A stretch of DNA of 64,000 nt. Origin: Bacillus gaemokensis. GTDB taxonomy: Bacteria > Bacillota > Bacilli > Bacillales > Bacillaceae_G. Shown here piece by piece: positions 31,570-53,948 of the stretch. The stretch lies in NCBI RefSeq assembly GCF_001590835.1, contig NZ_LTAQ01000008.1:20127-84126 (forward strand), given 5' to 3'. The position numbers were made by a program, and so were the translations under genes. How positions within the stretch are numbered: position 1 is the first letter of the stretch; each line of letters starts with the position of its first letter. A model generated the notes under the pieces. It was given only the letters and a program-made list of their open reading frames with translations, did not search any database and had not been told where the DNA came from.

Positions 31570-31634
31570 CTTACAGAATTGTAATGTTCATGTAAGGAGA
31601 ATGAATAGATGGTATGTTATCCCAATGTTATAGT
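31570..31634 (+). promoter_or_regulatory. TTACA-box promoter P1 of the second bceAB operon
   Basis: CTTACA at 31570 followed by N4-TGTAATGTT, TGTAAG at 31591-31596, 8 bp, -35 ATAGAT (31605-31610), 18 bp, -10 TATAGT (31629-31634). TTACA-N4-TGTAA agrees with the BceR binding pattern known from B. subtilis. Confidence 0.75.
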
Positions 31635-31686
31635 AACAAAGTGGTTATTTCGTGAAGTGAAATTTATGTTTCTTCTGCTAAGTGGC

Positions 31687-31751
31687 CTTACATAACTGTC
31701 ATGTTTGTGTAAGAAACATCGATAGTGGCAAAAGTAGAAGTTAGATATAGT
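31687..31751 (+). promoter_or_regulatory. TTACA-box promoter P2 of the second bceAB operon
   Basis: CTTACA at 31687, TGTCATGTT, TGTAAG at 31708-31713, 8 bp, -35 ATAGTG (31722-31727), 18 bp, -10 TATAGT (31746-31751), 35 bp before the ATPase ATG. All spacings equal those of P1. Confidence 0.78.
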
Positions 31752-31786
31752 GAAAATAGAGAATAGAAGAAGAGAGGGATATAGAT

Positions 31787-32557
31787 ATGAAAACAGTATT
31801 AGAAGCGAAACATATAAAAAAAGTATATGATACGGGTGGAAATAAATTTGAAGCGTTAAAAGGTATTAACTTACAAGTTCAAGAAGGCGAATTCGTTGGA
31901 ATTATGGGACCTTCTGGATCGGGTAAAACGACTCTTTTAAATGTGCTTTCGACGATTGATAATGCAACGAGCGGTGAAATTTTAATTGATGGAAAAGACA
32001 TTGTGAAAATGAATGATGATAAATTAGCATTATTCCGCCGTGATCATTTAGGGTTCATTTTCCAAGATTATAACTTATTAGATACGCTAACGGTGAAAGA
32101 GAATATTGCGTTGCCACTTGCGTTATCTAAAGTGAAAACAAGTGAAATTGATCGCCGTGTTCTTGAAATTTCGAAGAAGTTTGGTATTGATCATATTTTA
32201 AGTCAATATCCATATCAAGCATCTGGTGGGCAGAAGCAGCGCTGCGCAGCATCTCGTGCAATCGTTACAAATCCAAGTATGATCTTTGGAGATGAGCCAA
32301 CGGGAGCACTTGATTCAAAATCAGCGACAGATTTATTGGAAAGCATGAAATCATTAAATGAATACGATAATTCAACAATTTTAATGGTAACGCATGATGC
32401 ATTTGCAGCAAGTTATTGTAAACGCGTTATCTTCATTAAAGATGGCGAGTTATATAAAGAATCGCACCGCGGGGAATTAACTCGTAAACAATTCTTCCAA
32501 CAAGTAGTAGACATGATGTCCACAATTTCTGGAGGTACAATGGATGACGTTATCTAG
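31787..32557 (+). CDS. BceA-type ABC transporter ATPase (second module)
   Basis: 256 residues. Walker A GPSGSGKTT near 41, FIFQDYNLLDTLT near 92, signature ASGGQKQRCAASRA near 145, Walker B MIFGDEPTGALDSKS near 165, THDAFAASYC near 208. It overlaps the permease by 14 bases. No kinase or regulator gene adjoins it, unusual for Bce modules, but two TTACA-box promoters stand in front. Confidence 0.92.
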   Translation: MKTVLEAKHIKKVYDTGGNKFEALKGINLQVQEGEFVGIMGPSGSGKTTLLNVLSTIDNATSGEILIDGKDIVKMNDDKLALFRRDHLGFIFQDYNLLDTLTVKENIALPLALSKVKTSEIDRRVLEISKKFGIDHILSQYPYQASGGQKQRCAASRAIVTNPSMIFGDEPTGALDSKSATDLLESMKSLNEYDNSTILMVTHDAFAASYCKRVIFIKDGELYKESHRGELTRKQFFQQVVDMMSTISGGTMDDVI

Positions 32558-34493
32558 TATTGCCCTCCGCAATATACAGCGGAATTTTAAAGATTACTTT
32601 CTATATTTTGCTTCAATGATTTTCAGCATCGTCATTTATTTTACATTTAAGGCGCTCGAATATAACTCTCAAATGGAAAAAGCAGCGGAAGGCTCTAAGA
32701 AAATTAGTGGAGCATTCCAAGTATCCAGTGTGATGCTGATTATTTTCGTAGCGGTATTTATTATATACTCTAATGGATTCTTTACACGTAAACGTAAAAA
32801 AGAAGTTGGATTATATTCACTGCTTGGAATTCGAAAAAAACAAATTGGTAAAATGTTATTTTATGAAAATATGCTAATGGGATTCGTATCATTAGTCATC
32901 GGGATTGCAATTGGTAGTGTACTTTCGAAGTTATTCCTTGAACTATTAGTAAGCATGATGGGACTGAACTTAAATGTTCACTTTGAAGTGCCAATGTCCG
33001 CAATTATTGATACAGCAATTATCTTCTTTGTGATTATTCTTTATACATCACTTCAAGGATACCGTTTAATCTATCGCTTTAAATTAATCGAACTTTTCCG
33101 TGCGGAGCGTGAAGGAGAATCAATGCCAAAAGGATCAATGATTATGGCTTTGATTTCAATCTTCTTAATTGGTTCTGGTTATTTCTTATCACTTACATTT
33201 ATGAAGGCTGCTAAATACGCTGACTTTATGATGGTTGCTTTTTACATCCTGCTTGCAACGGTACTTGGTACATATTTACTGTTTACATTTTTTACAGTAT
33301 TTGTACTAAAACGAGCGAAATATAAGAAATCATCTTTCTATAACGGTATGAACATGGTAATAACGTCACAACTATTGTACCGTATTAAAGGCAATGCAAA
33401 ATCTCTTGCGACAATTGCAATATTAAGTGCGGTAACATTAACGGCAGTTGGTACGTCCGTTACGATGTATTACAACACATTTACCCAAGCCAAGGAATTT
33501 GCACCGCATAGTTATTCGTATGAGAAAAAAGGCACAGCATTAGATAATAAAGTAAATACAATTCTTGCTGAAGAAAAGAAAAATCATCCCGTCACAGATC
33601 AATTTGAAGTTGAGATGATTCCTGTTAAAGGGAAATTTGAAGGGAAACAAGCAGATATGCTTGGAAATACTCATTATCGAATTACTGAGCAATACCAGCT
33701 TATCTCCCAATCAAACTTTACTAACATTGCAAAAAAAATGAATATAGATGTAGTAGATGTGGAAGCTAATGAAGCTTTTGTATATGATAATTCATATATT
33801 GAAGGGCATGAGTTTAGCATTGACTATAAAGGGAATAAAGCAGTATTCCCGATTGGAAATGAAACGAAGACGCTAACAATTAAAGGTACAGGAAGCAGTA
33901 ATATTACGAACTTAGGTGAGTTATTTGTAATTGTTCCAGATCAAGTATATGAAGAGGCGAAAAAAGTAGCTGGAACACGCGTTGTAAAAAATATTGATGT
34001 TAAAGATGAAAGAAATAGTAAAGTTTTAACAGAAAAATTAGCAAAAGTAATGCCGGCTGGAAAATCTGAATTTGAAACACCATTCAGAGACTTTTACACT
34101 GGTTTCCATATGGGACTTGAAGCAACAGGCTTAATGATGTTTATCGGTCTATTCCTAGGCTTAGTCTTCTTACTCGCAACAGGTTCTATCATTTATTTCA
34201 AGCAGTTAACAGAAGCAAGTGCGGATCGCGATCGCTACGTAGTACTTCGTAAAGTCGGAGTAACAAAAAAAGAAATGAAGAAGGCGGTTGCAAAACAAGT
34301 AAGTTTTATCTTCGCAATTCCATTAGTAGTAGGGATTTGCCACAGCTTATTTGCTTTAAAAGGTTTATCAACATTAATGCCATATGAAATACTGATCCCA
34401 TTATTAATGAGTATCGGTGTGTATAGCGTTATTTATATTGGATATTACTTCTTAACAGTTCGTTCTTACTATAAGATTGTGAGCGCGAAGTAA
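32544..34493 (+). CDS. BceB-type ABC transporter permease (second module)
   Basis: 649 residues, ten helices with a large extracellular domain at about 310-525. N-terminal SSIALRNIQRNFKDYFLYFAS and C-terminal ADRDRYVVLRKVGVTKKEMKKAVAKQ are the usual Bce permease signatures. The extracellular domain is Lys-rich and unlike those of the other three permeases here, suggesting another peptide ligand. ATG within the end of the ATPase gene after GGAGGT. Confidence 0.9.
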   Translation: MTLSSIALRNIQRNFKDYFLYFASMIFSIVIYFTFKALEYNSQMEKAAEGSKKISGAFQVSSVMLIIFVAVFIIYSNGFFTRKRKKEVGLYSLLGIRKKQIGKMLFYENMLMGFVSLVIGIAIGSVLSKLFLELLVSMMGLNLNVHFEVPMSAIIDTAIIFFVIILYTSLQGYRLIYRFKLIELFRAEREGESMPKGSMIMALISIFLIGSGYFLSLTFMKAAKYADFMMVAFYILLATVLGTYLLFTFFTVFVLKRAKYKKSSFYNGMNMVITSQLLYRIKGNAKSLATIAILSAVTLTAVGTSVTMYYNTFTQAKEFAPHSYSYEKKGTALDNKVNTILAEEKKNHPVTDQFEVEMIPVKGKFEGKQADMLGNTHYRITEQYQLISQSNFTNIAKKMNIDVVDVEANEAFVYDNSYIEGHEFSIDYKGNKAVFPIGNETKTLTIKGTGSSNITNLGELFVIVPDQVYEEAKKVAGTRVVKNIDVKDERNSKVLTEKLAKVMPAGKSEFETPFRDFYTGFHMGLEATGLMMFIGLFLGLVFLLATGSIIYFKQLTEASADRDRYVVLRKVGVTKKEMKKAVAKQVSFIFAIPLVVGICHSLFALKGLSTLMPYEILIPLLMSIGVYSVIYIGYYFLTVRSYYKIVSAK

Positions 34494-34498
34494 TGAAA

Positions 34499-34537
34499 GA
34501 AGCAGCTATTGTTATAGGCAATAGCTGCTTTTTTATT
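34499..34537 (+). terminator. Terminator of the second bceAB operon
   Basis: AAGCAGCTATTG / CAATAGCTGCTT with loop TTATAGG, then six T. The one at 36354 is similar in sequence (GCAGCTATT arms). Confidence 0.9.
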
Positions 34538-34572
34538 TATATGTAGTACTGTTACAATATATCTTTCTCTTC

Positions 34573-34627
34573 TTAAGAAAATGTTAAGAAACCTCCTCGG
34601 TATTTGTTAAGAAATGATAGTTATACT
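34573..34627 (+). promoter_or_regulatory. Activator-type promoter with phased TTAAGAAA repeats
   Basis: TTAAGAAA at 34573, 34584 and 34607, i.e. 11 and 23 bp apart (one and two helical turns), ahead of TATACT (34622-34627). The -35 position (GGTATT) is poor. This is typical of promoters activated by OmpR-family regulators, and drives the methyltransferase-DedA pair. Confidence 0.65.
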
Positions 34628-34670
34628 TAGAGCCAGGTTACAAAATACCGAATGAACGGAGAGAGGATAG

Positions 34671-35954: not shown

Positions 35955-36323
35955 ATGAAACAATTTATTATTGGAACTGCACTACTTGTAGCTGGAATAG
36001 GTATATTCTTAATGAAAGGCGGCGTTATGATTGATCGTTTAAATCCACTTGTAAAAACTGATACGTATTATACAGTTGTAAAAACCGATGGTACACATTT
36101 AGGAAAAGATAGTATGAAAAAAGATAGTGAAAGCTATGAGTACCACTTCAAAGGTTATAACGATAAAGGTAAAGAACAAGATATTATTATTAATGTAACA
36201 AAAAATCTTCGTCAAGGAGCATACTTAGAAGTAGCTGCTAAAGGACAAAACGGTAAATCTTGGGGAGAAGTGCAACCAAATGAAATTCCTGATGTAGCGA
36301 AAGCAAAATTAGGATTGAAGTAA
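35955..36323 (+). CDS. YxeA-family secreted/membrane-anchored protein
   Basis: 122 residues. An N-terminal uncleaved-type helix (FIIGTALLVAGIGIFL) leads into a small beta-rich domain with KTDTYYTVV and YEYHFKGYNDKGKEQDI, as in YxeA/DUF1093. Family members are often near two-component or Bce-type loci; function is unknown. It has a weak GGCGG ribosome binding site and its own terminator. Confidence 0.8.
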   Translation: MKQFIIGTALLVAGIGIFLMKGGVMIDRLNPLVKTDTYYTVVKTDGTHLGKDSMKKDSESYEYHFKGYNDKGKEQDIIINVTKNLRQGAYLEVAAKGQNGKSWGEVQPNEIPDVAKAKLGLK

Positions 36324-37815: not shown

Positions 37816-37817
37816 CT

Positions 37818-40928: not shown

Positions 40929-41006
40929 TATAGGTGTAAGGTAAAAGGCAAGCACATTTTAGGTAAAAAGGCTTTAGGCACTATATGTGAAAAGGAGTAG
41001 GAGGGA

Positions 41007-41339
41007 ATGGAGAAACGTTGGACGACCCTTGCTTTGTTATCAACTAGCAACAACATGATGCTAGCTGGAGAGATGAGCCTTTCGCATTTGTTTGATCGAG
41101 AAGACGATCATTCTTCTTCACAATTTACAATGAAATGGTGTAAATGGAGCGAAAGTTGTAAGTTTGAAGAAGAGACCCCTAATGAAGAGCAAAGAATCAT
41201 TTTAACAGACCCCATTCAAACATGGGTTGTTCAACATCGTAAGTGTAACGTCAAAAATCACTTAAAGAAAATTGAGCCGAGACAATTAGGTATCGCTTCA
41301 GACTCTCTTACTCTGAAATCACAAGAAAGTAACAATTAG
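41007..41339 (+). CDS. Unknown 110-residue protein under a Bce-like promoter
   Basis: Starts MEKRWTTLALLSTSNNMMLA with a good GGAGGGA site. No convincing signal peptide or membrane helix. Three Cys (in WCKWSESCKF and RKCNV) and many charged residues. A segment IQTWVVQHRKCNVKNHLKKI is amphipathic. I recognise no family. The TTACA-box promoter is shared with a BceAB pair and a lipoprotein, so a part in peptide-antibiotic response is a fair guess, not a finding. Confidence 0.65.
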   Translation: MEKRWTTLALLSTSNNMMLAGEMSLSHLFDREDDHSSSQFTMKWCKWSESCKFEEETPNEEQRIILTDPIQTWVVQHRKCNVKNHLKKIEPRQLGIASDSLTLKSQESNN

Positions 41340-41588: not shown

Positions 41589-42035
41589 ATGAAAAAGAAA
41601 CTTTTACCAATTTGTACGATGGCACTTTTAACAGTAGGATATTCATCGGTAGCTAGTGCAGCTGCTGGACCAATGACAAAAGAAGAAGTAGCACAAGTAC
41701 AACAAGATACAACGAAAAAAGAAGCAGCAATTCAAGAACAGAAAAAGGTTGAAGCAGCGAAAAAAGAAGCAGCAATTCAGACGCAACAAAATCAAGATAA
41801 GATGAAAAAAGAAGCAGCAATTCAGGAACAACAAAAACAAGATCAAATGAAAAAAGAAGGAATTCAAAAACAACAAAATCAAGATAAGATGAAAAAAGAA
41901 ACAGCAAAGGAAGTTACAAAAGGTGAGAAACTACCAAATACAGCATCAAATAGCGTAACAATGATGGCATTAGGCGCATGTCTTGTAGCGTTAGGGTCAT
42001 TATTTGGATTTACTCGCCGTAAGATTAAAGCATAA
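41589..42035 (+). CDS. basI: LPNTA cell-wall-anchored protein, BasI-like
   Basis: 148 residues: signal peptide (1 to about 25, cut after ASA), a Lys/Gln-rich helical region of repeats (KKEAAIQEQ-type units, about 40-105), sorting signal LPNTA at 115-119, hydrophobic segment and RRKIKA tail. In B. anthracis sortase C anchors BasI through LPNTA to wall peptidoglycan. The gene next door is that sortase, which supports the name. The repeats suggest a coiled coil and may vary in number between strains. Confidence 0.88.
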   Translation: MKKKLLPICTMALLTVGYSSVASAAAGPMTKEEVAQVQQDTTKKEAAIQEQKKVEAAKKEAAIQTQQNQDKMKKEAAIQEQQKQDQMKKEGIQKQQNQDKMKKETAKEVTKGEKLPNTASNSVTMMALGACLVALGSLFGFTRRKIKA

Positions 42036-42082
42036 AATAAAAGGTGTATTAGTTTATAAAGAATGGGATAATTTCATATATT

Positions 42083-42112
42083 AAAAATGGTAGGATATCC
42101 CTACCATTTTTT
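42083..42112 (+). terminator. Attenuator between basI and srtC
   Basis: AAAAATGGTAG / CTACCATTTTT hairpin, with T-run, 18 bp before the sortase ATG. It should make much more BasI than sortase from one transcript. Confidence 0.85.
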
Positions 42113-42129
42113 GCATGGAGGGATTAAAA

Positions 42130-42750
42130 ATGACAATTCTAAATCGTATTGGATTTGTTCTCATGATAATTGGTGTTTTAATTGGGGGATATTATTCTTT
42201 TGAGTGGTACAAAGGGAAAAGTGCAGCACAAGATTTAACAACGGAAGAGGTAAAGCGTTTGGAACAGATAGAGCCAAAACAACAATCCAATGAAAAACCT
42301 GTTAATTCTCAAGTATCTTCTTCTCAAATGCAATATAAAGAAGGCGAGAAAGTAGCCGTATTAAATATCCCGAAAATAAAGAAAAAGTTTTCTGTATATT
42401 GGGGAGCGAATGACACCACATTGAAAAAAGGAGTTGGGATGTTTGTTAGTGATAGTACAACAGCTCCATCTGGAGGAGGACACACTGTACTGAGTGGACA
42501 TCGTGATACGGTTTTTACAGACTTAGGGGAACTTAAAGAAAAAGATAAACTCATTGTGGAATATGATAATAAAATTTATAGTTATGAGATTCAAAAAACG
42601 TGGATTACCCATGCAGATGATCGCACCGTCATTGTAAAGAAAGAAGAACCAACATTAACGCTCACGACCTGCTATCCATTTGATTATATTGGTGATGCAC
42701 CAGATCGATATATTATTGAAGCGAAGTTGATTGCTACTGATTCAAAATAA
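42130..42750 (+). CDS. srtC: Class D sortase (sortase C of the B. anthracis scheme)
   Basis: 206 residues. Membrane anchor helix at about 5-23, a linker rich in Gln/Ser, then the catalytic beta-barrel: His124 in LSGHRDT, Cys181 in TLTTC, Arg193 in PDRY. TLTTCYPF is the class D signature. It cleaves LPNTA signals and links the protein to the wall. ATG 42130 follows GGAGGG; the earlier in-frame ATG at 42115 lies before that site. Operon with basI, then a two-component system. Confidence 0.9.
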   Translation: MTILNRIGFVLMIIGVLIGGYYSFEWYKGKSAAQDLTTEEVKRLEQIEPKQQSNEKPVNSQVSSSQMQYKEGEKVAVLNIPKIKKKFSVYWGANDTTLKKGVGMFVSDSTTAPSGGGHTVLSGHRDTVFTDLGELKEKDKLIVEYDNKIYSYEIQKTWITHADDRTVIVKKEEPTLTLTTCYPFDYIGDAPDRYIIEAKLIATDSK

Positions 42751-42797
42751 GGTTACAGTATTTTTGTCTTTAGTAATGAGAGAAGGAGATGTAGAAC

Positions 42798-43487
42798 ATG
42801 GCAAAAACAATTTTGATTGTTGAGGATGAGGATATTTTACGTGAAATTTTGAAAGATTATTTTTTAAATGAACAATATAAAGTGCTTGAGGCAAGAGATG
42901 GGAAGGAAGCGTTAGTTTTATTTGAAGAAGAAGAGGTTCATTTAGTCATTCTTGATATTATGTTGCCAGAATTAGATGGTTGGTCTGTTTGCAGAAGAAT
43001 TCGTAAGACGTCTCAAGTACCGATTATTATGCTCACAGCACGTGTAGATGAAGATGATACATTACTTGGATTTGAGCTAGGGGCAGATGATTATGTAGCA
43101 AAACCATATAGTCCGCCTATTTTGTTAGCAAGGGCAAAGCGTTTGTTGGAATATAAAGAAGTTATCAATAAATCTTCAGCTAATGAAGATGATACGTTAT
43201 CTATTTATGGAATTTGCGTTCATTTCCCATCACGTACCGTTACGATAGATGGGGTTGATATTAATTTAACGCATACAGAGTTTGAAATATTAACGTATTT
43301 CATGAAGAACCAAGGGATTGTTTTGACAAGAGAACAATTAATTACAAGAATTTGGGGATATGAATTTGCTGGTGATGACCGAACAGTAAATAGCCATATT
43401 CGTAATTTACGTAATAAATTAGGAGATAAAGCGAAGTATATTACTACTGTTGTTCGAATGGGGTATAAATTTGAGGGGAATGTATGA
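42798..43487 (+). CDS. OmpR-family response regulator of the basI-srtC locus
   Basis: 229 residues. Receiver with E9-D10-E11 pocket, phospho-Asp 53 (LVILDIMLP) and VAKPYSPP Lys; winged-helix domain with NLTHTEFEILTYFM and DRTVNSHIRNLRNKLGD. AGAAGGAGAT before the ATG. Overlaps the kinase by 4 bases. Likely controls basI-srtC or a wall-stress set; no clear direct repeats were found before basI to prove it. Confidence 0.92.
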   Translation: MAKTILIVEDEDILREILKDYFLNEQYKVLEARDGKEALVLFEEEEVHLVILDIMLPELDGWSVCRRIRKTSQVPIIMLTARVDEDDTLLGFELGADDYVAKPYSPPILLARAKRLLEYKEVINKSSANEDDTLSIYGICVHFPSRTVTIDGVDINLTHTEFEILTYFMKNQGIVLTREQLITRIWGYEFAGDDRTVNSHIRNLRNKLGDKAKYITTVVRMGYKFEGNV

Positions 43488-45358
43488 GAAAAGGAATTGT
43501 ACTCAAATTATTTACCCTTACAACAGCGCTCTGCATGTTGATTTTAGCAACAATTTTTATTGGGCAAACGATATTCTTTAAACAATATTATGCAAATCGG
43601 AAAGTGGAAGATATTAAAGTAAATATAGATTCCTTTGAGAAGAATTATTTGAATCATGTAGGAAATGCCGAAGAAATTCAAAAACTAGAGCAAGATTTTT
43701 TACGGGAAAATAATACGTGGATTACAACTGTAGATCGGAATGGGAATTTAAAACATGCAAATGATTTTTATTTTGAAGTCACGCTAGATCGTTGGCAAGA
43801 GAAGAAGTTTGGACAAAAAACAATTATCGTTCCCTTGTACTATCTCATGAATATAGAAGAGATTGAAAGTACAAAACTACCTGGTTTTGTAGGACAACAA
43901 GTTTATTTTAGTGGAGTGAAACGAGCCGATAGTTTTGTCACATATTATTTAGAGTTAACAAAAGGGAATTTAAGTTGGTCTAATAAACTGTTAGATAAAA
44001 AGTTAGGAGAGAGAGAGCTTAAAGCAGATGAGGAAATGAAAAAAGCTACTCAAGGATTGACTGATGAAGAAAAGAAAAAAGTCGCTCAAGATTTGAGTGT
44101 TGAGGAAAAGAAGAGAGCTGCTCAGAATTCGAGTGTCCATATGGGAGGAACTGTTACGAAAGTACAGTTACCCGATGTAAAAGGACCTGTAAATCCAATT
44201 TATAAAAATAATTTATTTTTGGATAGTATAAAGGAATTTCAAACTGACTTATTATTAAAAGAGAGCAATAATATACAGTATTCAACACAAACAATGGACT
44301 ATGAAAAAAATGATATAAAATATAAATTATTAATCAAACCAATTAAAGAAAAAGATGGATCGTTAACATATATATACGCAATGGCTTCCTTGCAGCCTGT
44401 TGATGAAGCGGTACAAATGGTAAAGGATTATTATGTATATATCATTGCGTTTGTACTAGTACTTATTTTTCTTGCATCTTTCTATTATTCAAAACAAATT
44501 GCAAAACCGTTATTACGAATCAATGATACAACGAAAAAAATTGCACATTTAGATTTCACGGAAAGAATCCCGATTACATCAAAAGATGAGATTGGTGATT
44601 TATCGCAAAACATTAACATGCTATCTAATACACTACATTCACATATTGGACAACTGGAACAAGACATCGAAAAAGAAAGAAAGTTAGAAAACACACGGAA
44701 AGAGTTTATTGCAGGTGTGTCACATGAACTGAAAACACCTTTAAGTATTATGAAAAGCTGTATTTCTATATTGAAAGATGGGGTAGCAGAACATAAGAAA
44801 GAACATTATTTTCAGGCGATGGAAAAAGAAGTGGATAAGATGGATATGTTAATTTTAGACATGCTGGAGTTGGCTAAATTTGAATCTGGTACATATAAAA
44901 TGAAAATGGATACTTTTTATATTGATGGAGTTATTGAGTATATATGTGAACAGTTATCATTAGAGATAGAGAAAAAAGAATTACATGTTTACAAGCATAT
45001 ATCTCCAGCCCAAGTTGTTGCAAATCAACACCGCATTGAACAAGTAATTGTCAACTTCATTACGAATGCAATTCGTTATACGCCGGAGAAAGAAGAGATT
45101 ATTATCTCGACAATAGATGAACCGAATCGAGTAAAGATTTGTATAGAAAATAAAGGTACTCATATTGAAGAGGAACAATTAGATAAAATTTGGGACCGGT
45201 TCTATCGTGTAGATACGGCTCGTCAGCGTTCAAAGGGTGGAACCGGACTTGGACTCGCTATTTCTAAAAATATTTTAGAACTTCATGGCGTAGAGTATGG
45301 TGTAACTAATACAGAAGATGGTGTGCTATTTTTCTTCTATTTAAATAAAAAAGTGTAG
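43484..45358 (+). CDS. Sensor histidine kinase with large extracellular domain
   Basis: 624 residues. Helix 1 at about 10-32, extracellular domain 33-315, helix 2 at 316-336, HAMP 337-390, H-box FIAGVSHELKTPLSI with phospho-His 414, N-box NFITNAIRYTPEKE, then GTGLGLAIS. The extracellular part contains an insert at about 184-217 built of two and a half 14-residue units (KKxxQxLxxEEKKxxAQ), a charged helix resembling the repeats of BasI in composition. Unlike BceS it has a true sensor domain. Confidence 0.93.
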   Translation: MRKGIVLKLFTLTTALCMLILATIFIGQTIFFKQYYANRKVEDIKVNIDSFEKNYLNHVGNAEEIQKLEQDFLRENNTWITTVDRNGNLKHANDFYFEVTLDRWQEKKFGQKTIIVPLYYLMNIEEIESTKLPGFVGQQVYFSGVKRADSFVTYYLELTKGNLSWSNKLLDKKLGERELKADEEMKKATQGLTDEEKKKVAQDLSVEEKKRAAQNSSVHMGGTVTKVQLPDVKGPVNPIYKNNLFLDSIKEFQTDLLLKESNNIQYSTQTMDYEKNDIKYKLLIKPIKEKDGSLTYIYAMASLQPVDEAVQMVKDYYVYIIAFVLVLIFLASFYYSKQIAKPLLRINDTTKKIAHLDFTERIPITSKDEIGDLSQNINMLSNTLHSHIGQLEQDIEKERKLENTRKEFIAGVSHELKTPLSIMKSCISILKDGVAEHKKEHYFQAMEKEVDKMDMLILDMLELAKFESGTYKMKMDTFYIDGVIEYICEQLSLEIEKKELHVYKHISPAQVVANQHRIEQVIVNFITNAIRYTPEKEEIIISTIDEPNRVKICIENKGTHIEEEQLDKIWDRFYRVDTARQRSKGGTGLGLAISKNILELHGVEYGVTNTEDGVLFFFYLNKKV

Positions 45359-45641: not shown

Positions 45642-46316
45642 TTATTTTGTAGTGATAGTTACAAGCTCATAACCAATAATAGAAGTACCTTTCATTAGTT
45701 TTTTGATTGTAACATATTCCTTGTTTATTTTGTCGTCTGGATTATGAGAACGCATGTCACCTAGAGATTTATTGAAACTTAGTAGTTCCATATTTATTTG
45801 TGGAACTGGTATTTTATCGTATTGAGCATCCTTGAGCACTATAATACACCCTTCGAATTCATAGGAGCGGATCCCGCCCAGCCACGTATCACTGTCATAT
45901 TGAACAGAGATTTTTTCATTGTTAATCATCACATCTTTCATATTTTTGTCTTCCTTATTAGCGAATAATATAGCTTTATCCTTTGTAAATTTAGGTAAAG
46001 ATGTAATGGGTTCAGAGCTGATCATACCTTCATCATTATCACGTTTTTGTAAAATACCCTTTTGAATGAATTTCTTAGCAACAGTCTCATTAATAATGAG
46101 TATCTTTTTTTCATCTTTTGTATCTAATTTCACTTTGTATAACTCTTTAGATGTTGTCTCTTTTTTATATCTTTCTACTAAAGGAGAGACAGATTGCTCA
46201 TCTCCAAGGAGTAGCATTCCATTTGCAGGTTCTTCTTTTTTTCCGAACAAGGAACAAGCACTCATGCTAAAGAGAGTAAGTGTGGCGACTATATAAATTA
46301 TCATTTTTCTTTTCAT
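45642..46316 (-). CDS. Lipoprotein of the third Bce cassette
   Basis: 224 residues with signal peptide and lipobox TLFSMSAC (Cys21). After the Cys: GKKEEPANGMLLLGDEQSV, YKVKLDTKDEKKILII, SLPKFTKDKAILFANKED. The same pattern (ANGM-x-x-x-G-x-EQ-x-V; K-KL-x-T-x-x-x-KK; LP-x-x-x-x-D-x-x-x-LFA-x-E) recurs in the lipoprotein at 52937-53515, so they are paralogues. I chose ATG 46316 (GGAG six bases before, clean signal peptide) over ATG 46337, which overlaps the permease stop. It is the last gene of the ATPase-permease operon. A protective or sensing accessory role is inference. Confidence 0.8.
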   Translation of the reverse strand: MKRKMIIYIVATLTLFSMSACSLFGKKEEPANGMLLLGDEQSVSPLVERYKKETTSKELYKVKLDTKDEKKILIINETVAKKFIQKGILQKRDNDEGMISSEPITSLPKFTKDKAILFANKEDKNMKDVMINNEKISVQYDSDTWLGGIRSYEFEGCIIVLKDAQYDKIPVPQINMELLSFNKSLGDMRSHNPDDKINKEYVTIKKLMKGTSIIGYELVTITTK

Positions 46317-46333
46317 CTGTTTCTCCATTTCTC

Positions 46334-48295
46334 TCATTCATATATTTTTTGGTATAAACGTTTCATATAAATCTTTCTAATAATAAAGAAGTAAAGTATT
46401 TGCATGCACATAAAACTTACTAATACAATTATTGAACTTTGAATAACAGAAATCGTCTGACTTGTTGTCTGTCCTAATTGATGTAGTGTGAGAAATCCAA
46501 AACCACTGTGAATCATAGCGACTACAATCGGTAAGAAAAATAGTATCATCATTTGTCTTGTAACAATTTGTTTCAATTCTTTTTGGCTTAAACCTAATTT
46601 TGAAATCATTTGATATTGCTTTTGGTCACGTTCTAAATCCGTAAATAGACGAAAATATAAAAAGCTTGTTGCAAATACAAAGAACACAATTCCAACTAAT
46701 ACACTCGTAATAGACAGTAGTCCGTTTTGTTGTTTCATTTCCAGCCATTTCAAGCTTAAAGAAGACAAGCTGAAATCTGTATTACGATAATCGGCATTTA
46801 TTGATGTCATCAGCTTTTTCGCAACATCTGTTGTTTCAGTCCAATTTTTGATGATAAAGCCGTATAAAGTATACTCCGAAAGAGCGCCAACTCGGTCTAC
46901 TTCTGTTTGTACCTGTAAGACTTTGTTATAAACAGCATCAGAGACGACGACAATTTCTCCGTATTTATCTTGAAGCTCCGGAATTAATAAGTTTTTTTGA
47001 ACGGGAAGTGATATCTTTAAATCACCGTGCTCTAATCTAATTATTTTTGATGTGTTATTTTTGCTCTTTACTTTCTTCCGTGGTATGACAAGACTTTCGT
47101 TTTCATTTAATAATTTTTCTGGTGGATATCCTAGTGTTTTTGCGTATGCATTATAATCTGTTAGTTTTATTAAAGTTAGTCCATTTTCGGTTACTTTAAA
47201 TGTTGGTGAAACAAGTTTATAAGAAAAGCCTGATTGTTTCAGTTGTTTTTTTATCTCTTCAACGTGAGATTCTTCAAGCGTATTTCCTTTATACGATTCA
47301 TATCTAAATGCATAGGGGCTTTCACTTTCAGCTAATCCAGAAGTTCCAATGGCTGCACAAGTTCCGATAGCAGTAAAAGCAACAGCAGATATAATTGCAA
47401 CCATAAAGAATGTTTTTGCATTATCTTTCATTCGATAAATGAGTTCTGAGATAACAAGAAGATTTGTTCTTTTAAAGAATGTATTTTCTCTGTTTTTTAA
47501 AGTGTGCATCACATATACACTCAATTGAGTAAATAAGAAATATGTTCCAATTACGACAAATACGACCCCAGCGCCAACGAGTAGTAATAATTGATTCCCA
47601 CTCATGTAGTCTTTCGCGACGATAATGTGGTAGACGAAAGCGTAACCGGCTCCAATTGAGATAATTGCTAGCAGAGATAACCAAACAGATGCCTTTGGCT
47701 CGGGTTTTGGCTTTTCCTCGGATTTAATTAGTTCTCCAAGTTCATTCACTTTTACCATTCTTGATGTAAACAATGAAATAAGAAGAAATAAAACGAAAAA
47801 GGCAATGCTCGTTGTTCCAATAGCTTTCAGTGGAAAGTAGAAGGAAAGAGTGTGCTGCGTTGCCAATAAAGATCCACTAACCAGCAAAACTAATTTAGAA
47901 AAAATCATCCCAAGTCCAATACCTATTAGTATAGAGAGGATTCCAATTAACATATTCTCTAGAAAAACTAATCGATGGAGTTGTTGATGAGACATACCAT
48001 GTAACATAAATAATCCGAACTCTTTTTTTCTATTTTTCAAGAATGCACTAACAGAATATAAAATAAAAAAGAAAGAGAAGAAAAAGGTCAAGTACTGGGA
48101 TATTTGAAATCCTATTTTCCCAAATGTATTCATTACGATACTTACGCCAGTCAATTCTCCCTGTAAATTCGGATGAAAGGCAAGTAGCCCGTAAGTGAAA
48201 AAAATCATAACAGCAAATGTGCTACTAAAAAAATGACCAAGATATATTCGCTTGTTCCGTATGACGTTATTAAAGGCGAGCTGCCGAAAAGTCAT
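46334..48295 (-). CDS. BceB-type ABC transporter permease (third module)
   Basis: 653 residues, ten helices. N-terminal MTFRQLAFNNVIRNKRIYLG and C-terminal RDQKQYQMISKLGLSQKELKQIV are the family signatures. The extracellular domain at about 310-515 is between helices 7 and 8. Its ATG lies inside the end of the ATPase gene, overlap 26 bases. GGAGG precedes. Confidence 0.9.
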   Translation of the reverse strand: MTFRQLAFNNVIRNKRIYLGHFFSSTFAVMIFFTYGLLAFHPNLQGELTGVSIVMNTFGKIGFQISQYLTFFFSFFFILYSVSAFLKNRKKEFGLFMLHGMSHQQLHRLVFLENMLIGILSILIGIGLGMIFSKLVLLVSGSLLATQHTLSFYFPLKAIGTTSIAFFVLFLLISLFTSRMVKVNELGELIKSEEKPKPEPKASVWLSLLAIISIGAGYAFVYHIIVAKDYMSGNQLLLLVGAGVVFVVIGTYFLFTQLSVYVMHTLKNRENTFFKRTNLLVISELIYRMKDNAKTFFMVAIISAVAFTAIGTCAAIGTSGLAESESPYAFRYESYKGNTLEESHVEEIKKQLKQSGFSYKLVSPTFKVTENGLTLIKLTDYNAYAKTLGYPPEKLLNENESLVIPRKKVKSKNNTSKIIRLEHGDLKISLPVQKNLLIPELQDKYGEIVVVSDAVYNKVLQVQTEVDRVGALSEYTLYGFIIKNWTETTDVAKKLMTSINADYRNTDFSLSSLSLKWLEMKQQNGLLSITSVLVGIVFFVFATSFLYFRLFTDLERDQKQYQMISKLGLSQKELKQIVTRQMMILFFLPIVVAMIHSGFGFLTLHQLGQTTSQTISVIQSSIIVLVSFMCMQILYFFIIRKIYMKRLYQKIYE

Positions 48296-49040
48296 TTGTA
48301 TTTCCTCCTAACATCGAAAGAACATCCATAATGTTTTGATAAAATACTTGGCGATTTCCATCGCAGTGAATTTCATTATATAGCTCTCCATCTTTTATAA
48401 AAATAACACGGTCACAGTAGCTGGCGGCCATTGGATCATGTGTAACTAACATCATTGTTGCCTGTTCTTCTTGATTTAATTTTGTTAATAGTTCCATTAC
48501 ATCTTGTGAAGCTTTAGAATCTAAGTTTCCTGTTGGCTCATCAGCAAGAATCAATTTAGGGGAATGAATGAGTGCACGAGCAATTGCTGTTCGCTGTGCT
48601 TGTCCTCCCGATATTTCATATGTTCTTTTATTTAAAAGTTCACTAATTCCTAATTTCTCCGAAATAGATTCTACGCGTTTATTCATTCTTTTCACGTTCA
48701 TACCATCTAGTGTAAGTGGAAGAACCATATTTTCTTTTACTGTTAAGGTATGAAGCAGGTTAAAAGATTGAAAGACGAATCCTAATTCACGGCGACGAAA
48801 TAATGCTAGTGGATTAGGAGCAAGTTGGTGAGGATTTTCTCCATTAATAAACACTTTTCCCGATGTCGGTGAATCAATAGTTGAAATTATATTTAATAAT
48901 GTTGTTTTTCCACTTCCAGAGGGACCCATAATTCCAACAAACTCCCCCTTATTTATTGTTAAGTTAATATTTGAAAGTGCTTTATGTGAAACCTTTCCTG
49001 TATATTCTTTACTAAGATCTTTTACTTTTACTATCTCCAT
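48270..49040 (-). CDS. BceA-type ABC transporter ATPase (third module)
   Basis: 256 residues. Walker A GPSGSGKTT, signature ISGGQAQRTAIARA, Walker B LILADEPTGNLDSKA, THDPMAASYC. It resembles the ATPase at 22470 more than that at 31787 (QAQR signature, similar C-terminal FYQ-I-DVL-LGG). ATG 49040 follows AAAGGAG; the in-frame ATG at 49079 is without a site. No kinase adjoins. Confidence 0.9.
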   Translation of the reverse strand: MEIVKVKDLSKEYTGKVSHKALSNINLTINKGEFVGIMGPSGSGKTTLLNIISTIDSPTSGKVFINGENPHQLAPNPLALFRRRELGFVFQSFNLLHTLTVKENMVLPLTLDGMNVKRMNKRVESISEKLGISELLNKRTYEISGGQAQRTAIARALIHSPKLILADEPTGNLDSKASQDVMELLTKLNQEEQATMMLVTHDPMAASYCDRVIFIKDGELYNEIHCDGNRQVFYQNIMDVLSMLGGNTNDFSAARL

Positions 49041-49089
49041 ATGAAAAAATCTCCTTTCATGATTGTTGCTATTATTCATTGTAGTAGGA

Positions 49090-49153
49090 GGGATACTCTT
49101 CTCATATTGAATTGTCTTTCGTTTTACTTACATGTTTGTAATGTTTCTGAAAA
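49090..49153 (-). promoter_or_regulatory. Partial TTACA box before the third Bce cassette
   Basis: Leftward TTACA-AACA-TGTAAG (reverse of 49127-49140) precedes AAAGAC (49119-49114), 18 bp and TATCCC (49095-49090). Only the palindrome is strong; the second half-site and hexamers deviate from the four full modules. Confidence 0.4.
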
Positions 49154-49892: not shown

Positions 49893-49900
49893 ATTGTCAG

Positions 49901-49948: not shown

Positions 49949-49998
49949 TATGAAATACGTAATTGGAAAATGATGAGGTATGTATTTCGGCGTTTGCA

Positions 49999-50084
49999 CA
50001 ATTCCTACGTTAGCATTAACTAACAGGTTCAAAGGGTCGGAACGAAGTGTTCCCTCTCAGCAACGAGGCTCCCCCTGTGATAAC
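49999..50084 (-). ncRNA. TPP riboswitch (THI element)
   Basis: The reverse strand carries the conserved pieces in order: ACAGGGGGAGCC, GCTGAGAGGGAACAC, CCCTTTGAACCTGTTAG and TAATGCTAACGTAGGAA. These form the P2-P3 and P4-P5 arms that bind thiamine pyrophosphate. Binding should shut off thiT. Confidence 0.95.
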
Positions 50085-50175
50085 GAGATTCTTTATTTGT
50101 TAGGTTCATTGTAATGGAAATGGATGAGAATGGCAAATGAATCTATTAGGAATAGTCATTTGTATTTTTATATAT

Positions 50176-50449: not shown

Positions 50450-50475
50450 TATAATTTTTCTGAAAATAATTATCA
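50450..50475 (+). promoter_or_regulatory. feoA -10 region and Fur box
   Basis: TATAAT (50450-50455) is followed by TGAAAATAATTATCA (50461-50475), a 14-of-15 match to the TGATAATNATTATCA Fur box. It predicts iron repression. Confidence 0.82.
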
Positions 50476-50497
50476 TTCTCTTTTGAGGGGGAAGATT

Positions 50498-50725: not shown

Positions 50726-52716
50726 ATAAGGTTGCTTTGCTAGGGAATCCGAATACAGGAAAAACATCATTATTTAATGCGCTGACTGGTTCTTATGAGT
50801 ATGTAGGGAACTGGAGCGGGGTAACGGTAGAAAAGAAGGTTGGTAGGTTAAAGGATAAGCAAGGAACATTAATTGATTTACCAGGTGTATATGATTTAAA
50901 TCCTGTTTCCCGGGATGAAGGTGTTGTTACAAACTTTCTATTAACTGAAGAATTTCAGCATATGTTAAATATTGTTGACTCTTCTCAATTTGAGCGTAAT
51001 ATGCATTTAACATTGCAATTATTAGAATTTGGTAAACCTGTTTCTATCGGTTTAAATATGATAGATGTTGCGAAGCAGCGTGGAATCGTTATTAACGTGA
51101 AAAGACTATCAGAAATATTAGGAGTAACGGTCGTCCCTGTTGTTGCAAGAAGCGGAAAGGGTTGTGAAGAATTACTTGCTACCCTACATGAGAGTGAGAA
51201 GAAAGAGAAAAAGAAAAAGCCGTTCATTCTTTCCTATGGTGAACAAGTAGATGCAGGAATTGTAAGCATTATGGATCTTCTCACTAAGGAAAATTATGAG
51301 CATCCAAGATGGCTAGCGCTTCAATTTTTAAGCAATAACGAAGTTGTAGAACAAGAAGTAAAAAGGTTACTGATTTATAAGGAACTTGTGGCAATTCGCT
51401 CTAATCTAGAAGCAAAACTTGATAGTACATTAGAACAACATATTTACAAGACGCGTGAAGTGTATATTGAAAAGTTAAAAACAAACGTTATTCAGCATGA
51501 AAAGGAAGGGAAGATTCCTTTTTCAGAAAAAATCGATCAGTTAATTACACATAAAATTTTAGGACTTCCTATCTTTTTAGCGGTTATGTTTTTTATTTTT
51601 CAGGTTACGTTTACGTGGATTGGGACACCGTTATCGGATATGCTTGATGAATTTCTTGGTGGACAGTTTACGGATTGGGTTACAACAGGGCTCGTAAATA
51701 TTGGGGCATCGGAGTTTATTCAAGCTCTTATTACCGAAGGGATTATTGCTGGTGTTGGTGCGGTATTAGTATTCGTTCCACAAATTTTTGCTTTATTCTT
51801 CTTCATTTCACTACTAGAAGATTCAGGGTATATGGCCCGGATTGCAGTTGTGATGGACCGTATCATGGAGTTCTTTGGTTTAAACGGGAAGGCGTTTATT
51901 CCAATGATTATCGGATTTGGTTGTAACGTACCAGGAATTATGGCAGCAAGAACGATTGAGCAAGAAAAAGAAAGATTACTGACGGTCTTAGTAACGCCAT
52001 TTATGTCTTGTTCAGCTCGTTTACCTGTCTATGCATTATTTGCAGGAGTTTTCTTCCCGCATAGTCAAGCGGTGGTCGTATTCTCTTTATACATTGCGGG
52101 GATTGTACTTGCACTGTTAGTTACCAAGTTAATGTCTCTTACCGTTTTAAAAGAAGAAAAATCTATTTTTGTGATTGAACTCCCGCCTTATCGTATGCCA
52201 CAAGCAAAAACATTATGGCTGAGTACGTGGGAAAAAGGAAAAGGCTTCGTTCGTAAAGCAGGTACATTTATCTTTGGTGGTTCTGTTGTCATTTGGTTAT
52301 TAAACTATGCTGGTCCATCAGGATTTGGTGTTGATATGGGAAAAAGTTTCTTAGCGATCATTGGTGGTTTTATTGCACCGATTTTAGCCCCGCTCGGTTT
52401 TGGAACGTGGCAAGCGGCAGCATCACTTTTAACAGGATTTTTAGCAAAAGAAGTTGTTGTTTCCACAATGGCAATTATTTATGCGGTGAAAGAAGATGTG
52501 TTAGGAAATGTAATGGGAGCGCACTATACTGTATTATCAGCATATGCGTTCATGTTCTTCATTTTATTATACGTCCCATGCTTAGCAACAGTAGCTGTGA
52601 TTCGTCGTGAAACAGGCTCTGTAAAATGGACTATTTTCTCTGTTGTTTATCCACTTATCATCGCTTACGTGTTAACGCTCGTTATATACCAAGTCGGATC
52701 CTTACTCGGATTCTAA
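50722..52716 (+). CDS. feoB: Ferrous iron transport protein B
   Basis: 664 residues. N-terminal G domain with G1 GNPNTGKTS (8-16), G3 DLPGVYDLNP near 53 and G4 NMID near 112; a helical spacer to about 275; then about eight or nine helices with Gate-type motifs GFGCNVPGIMAARTI near 393 and the repeated GTWQAAASLLTGFLAKE near 560. Moves Fe2+ into the cell. Start is GTG coupled to feoA. Confidence 0.95.
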   Translation: MNKVALLGNPNTGKTSLFNALTGSYEYVGNWSGVTVEKKVGRLKDKQGTLIDLPGVYDLNPVSRDEGVVTNFLLTEEFQHMLNIVDSSQFERNMHLTLQLLEFGKPVSIGLNMIDVAKQRGIVINVKRLSEILGVTVVPVVARSGKGCEELLATLHESEKKEKKKKPFILSYGEQVDAGIVSIMDLLTKENYEHPRWLALQFLSNNEVVEQEVKRLLIYKELVAIRSNLEAKLDSTLEQHIYKTREVYIEKLKTNVIQHEKEGKIPFSEKIDQLITHKILGLPIFLAVMFFIFQVTFTWIGTPLSDMLDEFLGGQFTDWVTTGLVNIGASEFIQALITEGIIAGVGAVLVFVPQIFALFFFISLLEDSGYMARIAVVMDRIMEFFGLNGKAFIPMIIGFGCNVPGIMAARTIEQEKERLLTVLVTPFMSCSARLPVYALFAGVFFPHSQAVVVFSLYIAGIVLALLVTKLMSLTVLKEEKSIFVIELPPYRMPQAKTLWLSTWEKGKGFVRKAGTFIFGGSVVIWLLNYAGPSGFGVDMGKSFLAIIGGFIAPILAPLGFGTWQAAASLLTGFLAKEVVVSTMAIIYAVKEDVLGNVMGAHYTVLSAYAFMFFILLYVPCLATVAVIRRETGSVKWTIFSVVYPLIIAYVLTLVIYQVGSLLGF

Positions 52717-52732
52717 AAGGAGATGGATCATA

Positions 52733-52900
52733 ATGATGGTCAATATTGTAATTGGAGCTGTCATTTTTGGATATGCAGGATATACGTTAGTCAATTTTGT
52801 AAAGAGAAGTAAAAAAGGAAAATGTGCAGCATGTTCTTTGAATAAATCATGTCAGTCCAAGACATGTAGTCCTGACATGGAGCATGTGGTTCATAAATAG
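52733..52900 (+). CDS. FeoB-associated Cys-rich membrane protein
   Basis: 55 residues: one helix (NIVIGAVIFGYAGYTLVNFV) then a Cys-rich tail KGKCAACSLNKSCQSKTCSP with four Cys in CxxC-x5-C-x4-C spacing. Typical third gene of Firmicute feo operons (PF12669), perhaps handling iron or electrons. ATG 52733 or 52736, both behind AAAAGGAG. Confidence 0.9.
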   Translation: MMVNIVIGAVIFGYAGYTLVNFVKRSKKGKCAACSLNKSCQSKTCSPDMEHVVHK

Positions 52901-52934
52901 AAAAAAGCTTTGCGAATTTCGCAAAGCTTTTTTG
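52901..52934. terminator. Bidirectional terminator after feo operon
   Basis: AAAAAAGCTTTGCGAA / TTCGCAAAGCTTTTTT hairpin, also ending the leftward lipoprotein gene. Confidence 0.92.
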
Positions 52935-52936
52935 AC

Positions 52937-53515
52937 TTACTTTTTAATTTTAACCAGTTGTACTGCTTCTGTTTCTTTAGTCGTATCTTGGATTTTATCT
53001 TTAGGATCCTTATCAAATTTCAGTACACCTACAGATTTCTCTTCACCATTTACTTTTCCATATGCAGCATCATCCACGATTGCAAACATATCTGCATAAG
53101 AACGAGCATCACCGATAATTGTGTTGCCTTCATATTTTAATTTCGCTCCATCAATTGTCGCATTTGCAACTTCTTCTTTCGCAAATAATACACCTTGATC
53201 GGCTGTTACAGCTGGTAATTTATCAATTGCTTTTGTATTATCTTTTTCAACTTTCTTAATTAGTTCTTTTTTCACTAGTTCTTCACCAGTTTTCTTATCC
53301 ATGACAAGAACTTTCTTGTCATTTAATGTTGCAAGCTTCATTTTGTATGTGTTTTTTTCTTTAATATCAGATTTGTTTTTATTGATAACTTTGTTTACTT
53401 GTTGTTCACTTCCGTAAGTAACCATACCATTTGCTTTTTCTTCTAATAAAGAGCAACCTGATAATACTCCGAATGAAATTGCTGCTGCTAACCCGATTCC
53501 TACTAATTTTTTCAT
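52937..53515 (-). CDS. Lipoprotein under a TTACA-box promoter
   Basis: 192 residues. Signal peptide with lipobox FGVLSGC (Cys21), then EEKANGMVTYGSEQQVNKVI, TYKMKLATLNDKKVLVMDKK, KLPAVTADQGVLFAKEEV. These match, in order, segments of the lipoprotein at 45642-46316. AAAGGAG nine bases before ATG. It stands alone, divergent from pspA, with the same promoter module as the second bceAB pair. Family unknown to me; likely anchored on the outer face of the membrane. Confidence 0.85.
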   Translation of the reverse strand: MKKLVGIGLAAAISFGVLSGCSLLEEKANGMVTYGSEQQVNKVINKNKSDIKEKNTYKMKLATLNDKKVLVMDKKTGEELVKKELIKKVEKDNTKAIDKLPAVTADQGVLFAKEEVANATIDGAKLKYEGNTIIGDARSYADMFAIVDDAAYGKVNGEEKSVGVLKFDKDPKDKIQDTTKETEAVQLVKIKK

Positions 53516-53948
53516 TTTCTTATCTCCTTTTTTATATACGTTATAGTAAATACAATGTATACATTGTATTGTTTTTTATTTAAAGAAGCGAAAGTGTTTT
53601 TGTTGTAACCTCGGCTTCTGATTTCATTTTAGAGGAATAATAATTTTCTAACTATCGAGTTAGCTTACAGTAACATTACAATTATGTAATTTAGTGAAAA
53701 TACTTACAAATGTGTTAAATAGAAGTCAATTTGTAGGAAACCGCAAGTAAGTATATAGTAGGGGTACATATTGTGAAGAGAATGTCATATTGTAACGTGT
53801 ATATTTAGAAAATAACATGTAAGGACATCTTAGTTTTGATATAATGAACACGTAGGATTTGAAGATGAATATTCTTACTGTAAAGGGAATTTTTTAGTGT
53901 TCCAGGTATTGAATTTGAAATATGAAGCAACTTATAGGAGGAATTGGA
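53516..53948. other. Divergent control region, lipoprotein and pspA
   Basis: About 430 bp without a gene. The left part has the leftward TTACA-box promoter (53626-53690). The right part has a probable pspA promoter with TATAAT at 53840-53845 and a poor -35, suggesting activation. AT-rich between, with several TTACA/TGTAA words. Confidence 0.7.
53626..53690 (-). promoter_or_regulatory. TTACA-box promoter of the lipoprotein gene
   Basis: Leftward: TTACATAATTGTAATGTT from 53689, TGTAAG (53669-53664), 8 bp, -35 ATAGTT (53655-53650), 18 bp, -10 TAAAAT (53631-53626). TCGATAG over the -35 and all spacings equal those before the second bceAB pair. Confidence 0.78.

What the first reader, a model, noticed from the sequence alone, without database searches (positions are those of the whole stretch)
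31570..53690. A four-copy promoter module with rigid spacing defines a dispersed Bce-like regulon
Seen directly: promoters at 31570 and 31687 (second bceAB), 40863 (110-residue unknown protein) and 53690 leftward (lipoprotein) share CTTACA-N4-TGTNA, TGTAAG 21 bp on (22 in one), exactly 8 bp to ATAG(T/A)N, exactly 18 bp to a TATAGT-like -10, and often TCGATAG over the -35. The inverted TTACA-N4-TGTAA agrees with the known B. subtilis BceR site. The second bceAB pair has no adjacent two-component system, so a regulator encoded elsewhere, perhaps the BceR homologue at 26342, must run it. The grouping with a lipoprotein and an unknown protein is, to my knowledge, undescribed.
Basis: partly seen in the sequence, partly recalled or inferred. 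Interest (0 to 1): 0.82.

Follow-up and report, generated by a model that had tools for sequence, protein, structure and literature searches.

The report
Dispersed BceR-type peptide-antibiotic defence promoters
Five scattered promoters in this stretch of a Bacillus-like chromosome share one rigid control element, and comparison with related genomes ties that element to one family of regulators that probably switches on defences against antibiotics attacking the cell wall.

Summary
The missed one (49078-49142, minus strand) drives a third transporter operon, bceA-bceB-lipoprotein. Exact TTACA-N4-TGTAA occurs 4 times in the window against 0.19-0.28 expected. The -10 starts at base 60 of the module in four sites, 61 in S3.

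The regulator is most likely the BceR-like protein at 26342. In 86 regulator-linked promoters the step from main palindrome to secondary half-site is one helical turn (10-11 bp, 49) or two (20-21 bp, 35), with 2 others. The one-turn class follows a regulator clade that contains the window's protein. Profile R2 matched in 44 of 44 genomes with such a regulator (44 searched of 101 known), against 3 of 20 without, weakly.

Lipoprotein_22 genes lie behind such a module in 6 of 6 genomes that have them. Recurrent further targets are GT51 transglycosylases, YxeA-family and DUF418 proteins and ~30-residue peptides. A TCS-less plasmid copy of bceAB keeps module S1.

The 110-residue "protein" is doubtful. 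No genome of the window's organism was held, so its full regulon is unseen. New variant of a known kind.

The parts
31570..31634 (+). Module S1, distal promoter of bceAB2: CTTACA-N4-TGTAA, third half-site TGTAAG one turn on, -10 TATAGT at base 60
   Evidence: Half-sites and spacing conserved in the Bacillus arachidis plasmid copy L242.
31687..31751 (+). Module S2, proximal promoter of bceAB2, TTACA-N4-TGTCA, -10 TATAGT
   Evidence: Decayed in the B. arachidis plasmid copy.
40863..40928 (+). Module S3 (12-bp half-site step, -10 TAAACT at base 61), upstream of ORF110
   Evidence: A 12-bp step recurs before DUF418 genes in G371 and G316.
49078..49142 (-).
53626..53690 (-). Module S4, promoter of the stand-alone lipoprotein gene
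   Evidence: same arrangement upstream of Lipoprotein_22 genes in other genomes.
26342..27079 (-). RR1: OmpR-type response regulator, BceR-like; most likely regulator of S1-S5
   Evidence: Pfam Response_reg + Trans_reg_C; relatives linked to one-turn modules.
25314..26339 (-). HK1: BceS-like sensor kinase
   Evidence: Best solved match Sensor protein BceS 8g3a, E 5.9e-39.
20503..25264 (-). bceB1-bceA1-bceB1b: transporter operon behind RR1-HK1, without a module; proposed sensor transporter
   Evidence: no module found here.
31787..34493 (+). bceA2-bceB2, TCS-less BceAB-type transporter
   Evidence: bceB2 matches PsdB 9ugg (1.6e-74) and BceB 7tcg (1.2e-61).
45642..49079 (-). bceA3-bceB3-Lipoprotein_22 operon, TCS-less. 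The bceA3 start is more likely the in-frame ATG near 49040 (MEIVK, after an AGGAGG-type site), since the listed ATG overlaps the -10
   Evidence: start position read by eye from the translation.
52937..53515 (-). Stand-alone Lipoprotein_22 (PF17294), 32% identical to the one at 45642; relative of solved structure 4noh
41007..41339 (+). ORF110, coding status doubtful
   Evidence: No family or PDB match, none in 397 genomes, viral contigs or plasmids; codon score within the range of spurious ORFs.

Best explanation
S1-S5 are activator-dependent promoters of one dispersed Bce-type regulon. Proposed mechanism: the RR1-HK1-BceB1/A1/B1b unit (20503-27079) senses a peptide that binds lipid II cycle intermediates, and HK1 phosphorylates RR1. 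A dimer of RR1 binds the TTACA-N4-TGTAA palindrome; further RR1 binds the TG(T/A)AAG half-site one helical turn downstream. This places RR1 just upstream of a degenerate -35 (TCGATAG element) and recruits RNA polymerase to a -10 at a fixed distance. The output is two TCS-less BceAB-type effector transporters, two Lipoprotein_22 lipoproteins, and an unidentified transcript starting near 40935. The sensor unit itself has no module, so sensing and resistance are split. Shown: sequence, spacing, statistics, regulator-operator association, conservation of some targets. Inferred: phosphorylation, binding, activation, inducing peptide, function of the lipoprotein.
For: Four exact palindromes against 0.19-0.28 expected. 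In P. taiwanensis (L118, G001) the RR1 relative (75%) and the one-turn promoter of bceAB2 lie about 2.2 kb apart, divergent as in the window. In G004, G081, G102, G316 and G373 the module lies in the HK-bceA gap of the RR1-type system. RR tree of 87 rows: the one-turn label needs 4 changes against 28.7 in shuffles, 0 of 500 as low; window RR1 lies in a 32-row clade with 31 one-turn rows, support 97/90. R2 matches in 16 of 16 (E 0.01) and 28 of 28 (E 1e-4) RR1-clade genomes (11 of the 16 and 1 of the 28 had given training modules), against 3 of 20 RR1-negative genomes, best E 5.4e-5. Lipoprotein_22: 6 of 397 genomes, all 6 with a module directly upstream or at the head of the operon. The B. arachidis plasmid carries two TCS-less transporter operons, each with a one-turn module; it is not among the 32 plasmid records with a match to RR1 at E 1e-40.
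Against: No binding or expression data. The window's own genome is not held and no genome of its close group was found, so other RR1-like paralogues there cannot be excluded. The transporter operon next to RR1 in the window lacks the module. S2 is decayed in the plasmid copy. In 22 of 28 RR1-clade genomes there is only one site, within about 2.5 kb of the regulator gene, so a dispersed regulon is not the rule. R2 also matches promoters of other Bce-type systems: four bceA genes that I first took for orphans have their own kinase, and in two cases a regulator, next to them (L272, L279, L289, L294). ORF110 looks non-coding. The relative of the window's YxeA gene in G145 has a module (L291), the window's copy has none. 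Lactococcus lactis also has Lipoprotein_22 (control); its promoter was not examined.
Confidence: 0.75

Rival explanations
1. The promoters belong to a Bce-type regulon, but another BceR-like regulator encoded elsewhere in the chromosome runs them, alone or with RR1 (cross-regulation).
For: Paralogous Bce regulators can share targets: in L. paracasei PsdR activates ApsR targets (passages of PMC10858260). B. cereus-group genomes carry a further bacitracin cluster with its own two-component genes (PMC6208641, sections 7 and 9). The window's genome is not held. Profile R2 also matches promoters of other Bce-type systems.
Against: Spacing class follows regulator clade. Genomes with both types keep both spacings at the respective loci: G001, G004, G081.
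Confidence: 0.18
2. The sites are genuine but belong to several insulated paralogous systems, one or two promoters each, rather than to one regulon.
For: S3 has a 12-bp step and S5 a degenerate third half-site; three transporter operons lie in the window.
Against: The TGAAAG variant, one base from the CGAAAG of S5, is usual at HK-gap promoters of the RR1 clade. All five sites score alike with models R1 and R2 (the window sites were among the training sequences).
Confidence: 0.05
3. Chance: A+T-rich promoters that resemble one another by coincidence.
For: Palindromes with up to one mismatch are common: 12 in the window against 5.6 expected.
Against: Simulations, the same module in other genera, conservation of S1 in a plasmid copy whose upstream flank differs.
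Confidence: 0.02

Closest known systems
BceR/PsdR-type operator-promoters of Firmicutes (Dintner et al. 2011 and Fang et al. 2017 recalled, not read; consensus AnnTTACnAnnnnGTnAG for L. paracasei seen in PMC10858260)
   Same: Same inverted repeat with 4-bp spacer, a further half-site downstream, upstream of BceAB-type transporters.
   Different: Third half-site one helical turn from the palindrome instead of about two; TCGATAG element; tied to a distinct regulator clade.
Split sensor/effector Bce systems: ApsRS-ApsAB with DerAB, mprF, dlt (PMC10858260 passages seen); BraRS-BraDE with VraDE of S. aureus (recalled)
   Same: One regulator, TCS-less BceAB-type transporters elsewhere, extra envelope genes.
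   Different: Targets here are Lipoprotein_22 and, in relatives, GT51 transglycosylase, YxeA family, DUF418 and ~30-residue peptides; no dlt or mprF gene was recognised among the sites read.
S. agalactiae BceRS 9-gene regulon (PMC11502775 passages seen)
   Same: Bce regulator controls a second ABC transporter and extracytoplasmic accessory proteins.
   Different: That regulon is described as bceRS and adjacent genes; here targets are dispersed and the accessory proteins are of other families.
Accessory secreted proteins YsaD of L. lactis and YxeA of B. subtilis (PMC7438565 passages seen)
   Same: Small extracytoplasmic partner co-expressed with a BceAB-type transporter.
   Different: Lipoprotein_22 is another Pfam family; YxeA-family genes are also module targets in G001, G253, G182 and G145 (one-turn) and G081 (two-turn).

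Membership tests
BceR-type operator | Inverted repeat TNACA-N4-TGTAA | tested here: met
   Exact in S1, S3, S4, S5; one mismatch in S2.
BceR-type operator | Secondary half-site about two helical turns downstream (the form at the other BceR-like systems here; linker plus secondary site recalled from B. subtilis work) | tested here: not met
   All five window sites have a step of 11 or 12 bp; the two-turn step occurs in 35 of 86 regulator-linked promoters, one of them inside the 50-row group of RR1.
BceR-type operator | Bound by a phosphorylated BceR-like regulator | not testable with these tools
   Only association of spacing with regulator clade.
BceAB-type transporter | FtsX-type permease with large extracytoplasmic domain plus ATPase | tested here: met
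   bceB2 and bceB3 align over nearly their whole length with PsdB; FtsX domain.
BceRS-BceAB module | Two-component genes next to the transporter | tested here: not met
   bceAB2 and bceAB3 have no BceRS-like pair adjacent; the module-less transporter at 20503-25264 does.
Intramembrane-sensing BceS-like kinase | BceS-like kinase without extracellular sensor domain | tested here: inconclusive
   HK1 aligns with BceS 8g3a over residues 15-323; topology itself was not predicted.
Lipoprotein_22 (PF17294) | Match above the curated Pfam cut-off | tested here: met
   176.8 and 131.7 bits against 28.5.

The most novel reading that the evidence does not exclude
BceR-like regulators fall into two classes told apart by operator geometry: one or two helical turns between the main palindrome and the secondary half-site. 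The one-turn clade runs a lipid II defence regulon that in several Bacillaceae lineages recruits, beyond TCS-less BceAB transporters, a GT51 transglycosylase, Lipoprotein_22 and YxeA-family proteins, DUF418 proteins and a family of ~30-residue peptides. Half-site spacing keeps paralogous systems in one cell apart, and plasmids spread transporters that plug into the resident regulator by carrying only the promoter module.
Probability: 0.5. Interest if true: 0.75.

Novelty: new variant of a known kind. Interest (0 to 1): 0.6.

Why it matters
It gives a way to assign regulators to TCS-less BceAB transporters, which otherwise cannot be paired with a sensor. It proposes a simple, testable geometry rule for how near-identical BceR-like operators stay apart. 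It attaches two families of unknown function (Lipoprotein_22, DUF418), YxeA-family proteins and very small peptides to what is probably peptide-antibiotic defence. It also suggests that transporter genes on plasmids can be wired to a host regulator through the promoter module alone.

Tried and rejected
Searching the window's own genome: none held. Finding the same group in genome contigs by the lipoprotein: nothing; bceA2 gave 80 loci (the best 80 of 582), none from the close group by title; lipoprotein in the family of G001: 1 of 19 genomes, G001 itself. Viral contigs with three queries: nothing. Lipoprotein and ORF110 in plasmids: nothing; the bceAB3 operon in plasmids: nothing. ORF110 in 397 genomes: nothing, without a positive control. 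Leader of ORF110 as a structured RNA: no more stable than shuffles, z -0.27; no Rfam family there. A divergent site for pspA (53703): three mismatches and, by eye, a wrong distance to the -10; rejected. The ~30-residue peptide pattern was sought in the window and not found. The paper on BceR and PsdR promoter insulation is not held and is cited from recall only. No paper tying Lipoprotein_22 or the other targets to a Bce regulon turned up in searches (listings seen only).
Full report
WHAT IS THERE. Counted from the C of CTTACA, each has the palindrome TTACA-N4-TGTNA at bases 2-15, a third half-site at base 22, an ATAG-like element at base 36 and a -10 at base 60; in the 40863 copy the last three are one base further on. 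The fifth (49142 leftward) has the exact palindrome, third half-site CGAAAG and -10 TACAAT at base 60. It heads bceA3-bceB3-lipoprotein. Exact TTACA-N4-TGTAA occurs 4 times against 0.19 (first-order) or 0.28 (third-order) expected, reached in 0 of 300 and 0 of 100 simulated windows.

THE GENES. The lipoproteins at 52937 and 45642 are both Pfam Lipoprotein_22, 32% identical, related to the solved 'Lipoprotein, putative' 4noh. bceB2 and bceB3 align end to end with PsdB; bceB2 also aligns with BceB over its whole length, bceB3 only over its first half. HK1 aligns with BceS. ORF110 has no relative in any search made. Its codon log-odds of 0.066 per codon lie within the range of 24 window ORFs that I took as spurious, most because they overlap others or read antisense (-0.424 to 0.161), and below six genes tested (0.275-0.548). 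It does have a good ribosome-binding site and a terminator-like hairpin after it, read by eye. I leave its coding status open.

RELATIVES. The window's genome is not held, and none of its close group appeared in the genome collections. That it is of the Bacillus cereus group is my inference; no call names it. The comparison rests on other Bacillales and one plasmid. Lipoprotein_22 occurs in 6 of 397 Bacillales genomes, and in Lactococcus lactis among the controls, which I did not examine. In four of the six (L081, L084, L085, L086) an exact palindrome with the whole module lies upstream. In G001 a module with TGACA in the first half-site was found by profile R1 (not in R1's training set). In G102 the lipoprotein ends an operon RR-HK-[module]-bceA-bceB-lipoprotein. 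So 6 of 6 have a module directly upstream or at the head of the operon.

THE REGULATOR. RR1 (26342) has relatives in all six genomes, 54-75% identical. In five, the module lies in the gap between HK and bceA of that system. In the sixth, P. taiwanensis, it is the promoter of bceAB2, divergent from RR1 and about 2.2 kb away. RR1-type regulators at E 1e-70 were found in 101 of 397 genomes. In one search, 31 rows have a regulator at least 59% identical to RR1; 27 show the 11-bp step in the HK gap and 4 show no palindrome there. Of those four, L041 has the module at the divergent operon, and G352, G182 and G101 have an R2 site 1.3-2.4 kb away. Between 48% and 59% identity both steps occur. Over 86 rows with a measurable step the counts are 11: 48, 10: 1, 20: 7, 21: 28, 14: 1, 25: 1; 18 of the 104 rows had none and were dropped. 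On the regulator tree the one-turn label needs 4 changes, against 28.7 on average in shuffles (near-copies help to cluster any label). Window RR1 lies in a 50-row group (48 one-turn, 1 two-turn, window; support 99/96) and in a 32-row group (31 one-turn, window; 97/90). The lone two-turn row of the 50, L234, also reads GTTAAG at 11 bp. One one-turn row, L232 (10 bp), lies among two-turn rows. L229 is a long branch with weak half-sites. Regulators of both classes in one genome keep their own spacing: G001, G004, G081. The two classes differ strongly at the residue that is the first Asn in TLNVNITRLRKK of RR1, in the DNA-binding half: N in 46 of 49 one-turn rows, T or S in 34 of 35 two-turn rows. 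Clade history alone could cause this.

SPECIFICITY AND REGULON SIZE. Profile R2 (35 modules) matched in 16 of 16 RR1-clade genomes at E 0.01 and in 28 of 28 others at E 1e-4; 11 of the 16 and 1 of the 28 had given training modules. In 20 genomes without an RR1-type regulator 3 had a match, best E 5.4e-5. In 22 of the 28 genomes there was one site only, within about 2.5 kb of the regulator gene. Matches per genome are highest in G001 (16, one overlapping pair and one two-turn promoter of its second Bce system included), G081 and G145 (6 each) and G253 (4). I read 23 further sites and classed them: 15 have a step of 10-12 bp, 3 of 20 bp, 5 no clear secondary half-site. At least eight of the 23 appear to belong to other Bce-type systems rather than to dispersed targets: L272, L279, L289 and L294 have a kinase beside bceA, L293 precedes a bceA of G145's second RR1-type locus, and L280, L281 and L297 are near-identical two-turn promoters, of which only L281 showed a bceA. 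Three sites (L280, L290, L297) showed no ORF with a recognisable ribosome-binding site. Beyond Bce promoters these recur: GT51 transglycosylase, Pfam-tested, in G001, G371, G029, G253 and G182, all one-turn (G001); YxeA family/DUF1093 in G001 (two), G253, G182 and G145, one-turn, and in G081, two-turn (one of the two of G001); DUF418 in G371, G316 and G081, with steps of 12, 12 and 11 bp; Lipoprotein_22 as above; and peptides of 27-32 residues with a common pattern in G001 (three) and G081 (one), plus a less certain 29-residue one in G145 with a weak half-site. Seen once each: a lone bceB without two-component genes in 10 kb (G001, L165), a PAP2 protein resembling undecaprenyl-diphosphate phosphatase but below that family's cut-off (G370), a C39-type peptidase (G194) and a GT4 glycosyltransferase (G347), both next to a regulator locus.

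PLASMID COPY. A Bacillus arachidis plasmid carries bceAB2 at 83% DNA identity. S1 is preserved in its half-sites and spacing; S2 is decayed. A second BceAB-like operon on the plasmid (ATPase 55%, permease 25% identical to bceAB2) has its own module. No two-component gene is annotated in the 19 kb shown (PLSDB tables are incomplete), and the plasmid is not among the 32 plasmid records with a match to RR1 at E 1e-40. The copy therefore has to use a regulator from elsewhere, if it is regulated at all.

HOW IT WORKS. In the window and in P. taiwanensis the operon next to RR1 has no module, while TCS-less transporters have it. The simplest reading is a split system: RR1-HK1 and its own transporter sense, and the module-bearing operons resist, as reported for ApsRS/DerAB (passages of PMC10858260; roles of ApsAB and DerAB partly from recall). 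RR1 binding two adjacent sites on one face of the helix would explain steps of one or two whole turns. Lipoprotein_22 may guard or assist the transporter at the membrane surface; this is inference from operon membership.

KNOWN OR NEW. BceR-like operators, TCS-less BceAB transporters and regulons beyond the transporter are known (PMC7438565, PMC10858260, PMC11502775; passages seen). That linker and secondary site separate BceR from PsdR in B. subtilis is recalled from a paper not held, so the spacing rule may extend known work. I found no print record of the one-turn class, or of Lipoprotein_22, GT51 or the small peptides as Bce targets (searches; listings seen, six papers opened in part).

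Noticed in passing
20503-25264 (-): Permease-ATPase-permease transporter operon behind RR1-HK1. A hairpin followed by a T run lies between HK1 and the first permease (read by eye), so transporter expression may depend on read-through.
   Followed up: no
35955-36323 (+): YxeA-family gene (TIGR01655) without a module, although its 63% identical relative in G145 (L291) has one.
   Followed up: partly
49984-50085 (-): TPP riboswitch upstream of the ThiT thiamine transporter (Rfam RF00059).
   Followed up: no
41589-45358 (+): LPXTG-type protein (by eye), class D sortase and a second response regulator-kinase pair in one cluster.
   Followed up: no
L001: Clostridium intestinale bceA is 80% identical to bceA2, higher than any other locus, and no two-half-site module was found upstream; looks like horizontal transfer.
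   Followed up: no
L162, L166, L173: Family of 27-32 residue peptides directly behind one-turn modules in P. taiwanensis (three) and G081 (one).
   Followed up: partly
L164:5433-5515: Module with the palindrome one more turn upstream while the half-site to -10 part is unchanged, as if the palindrome can be shifted in whole helical turns.
   Followed up: partly
L168:5138-5524: Two modules about 270 bp apart that face each other, each in front of a very small membrane-type peptide.
   Followed up: partly
L272, L279, L289, L294: Other Bce-type systems (regulators 40-44% identical to RR1 where seen) whose HK-bceA promoter has the palindrome but no clear secondary half-site; three of the four carry a CGATGG element.
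   Followed up: partly
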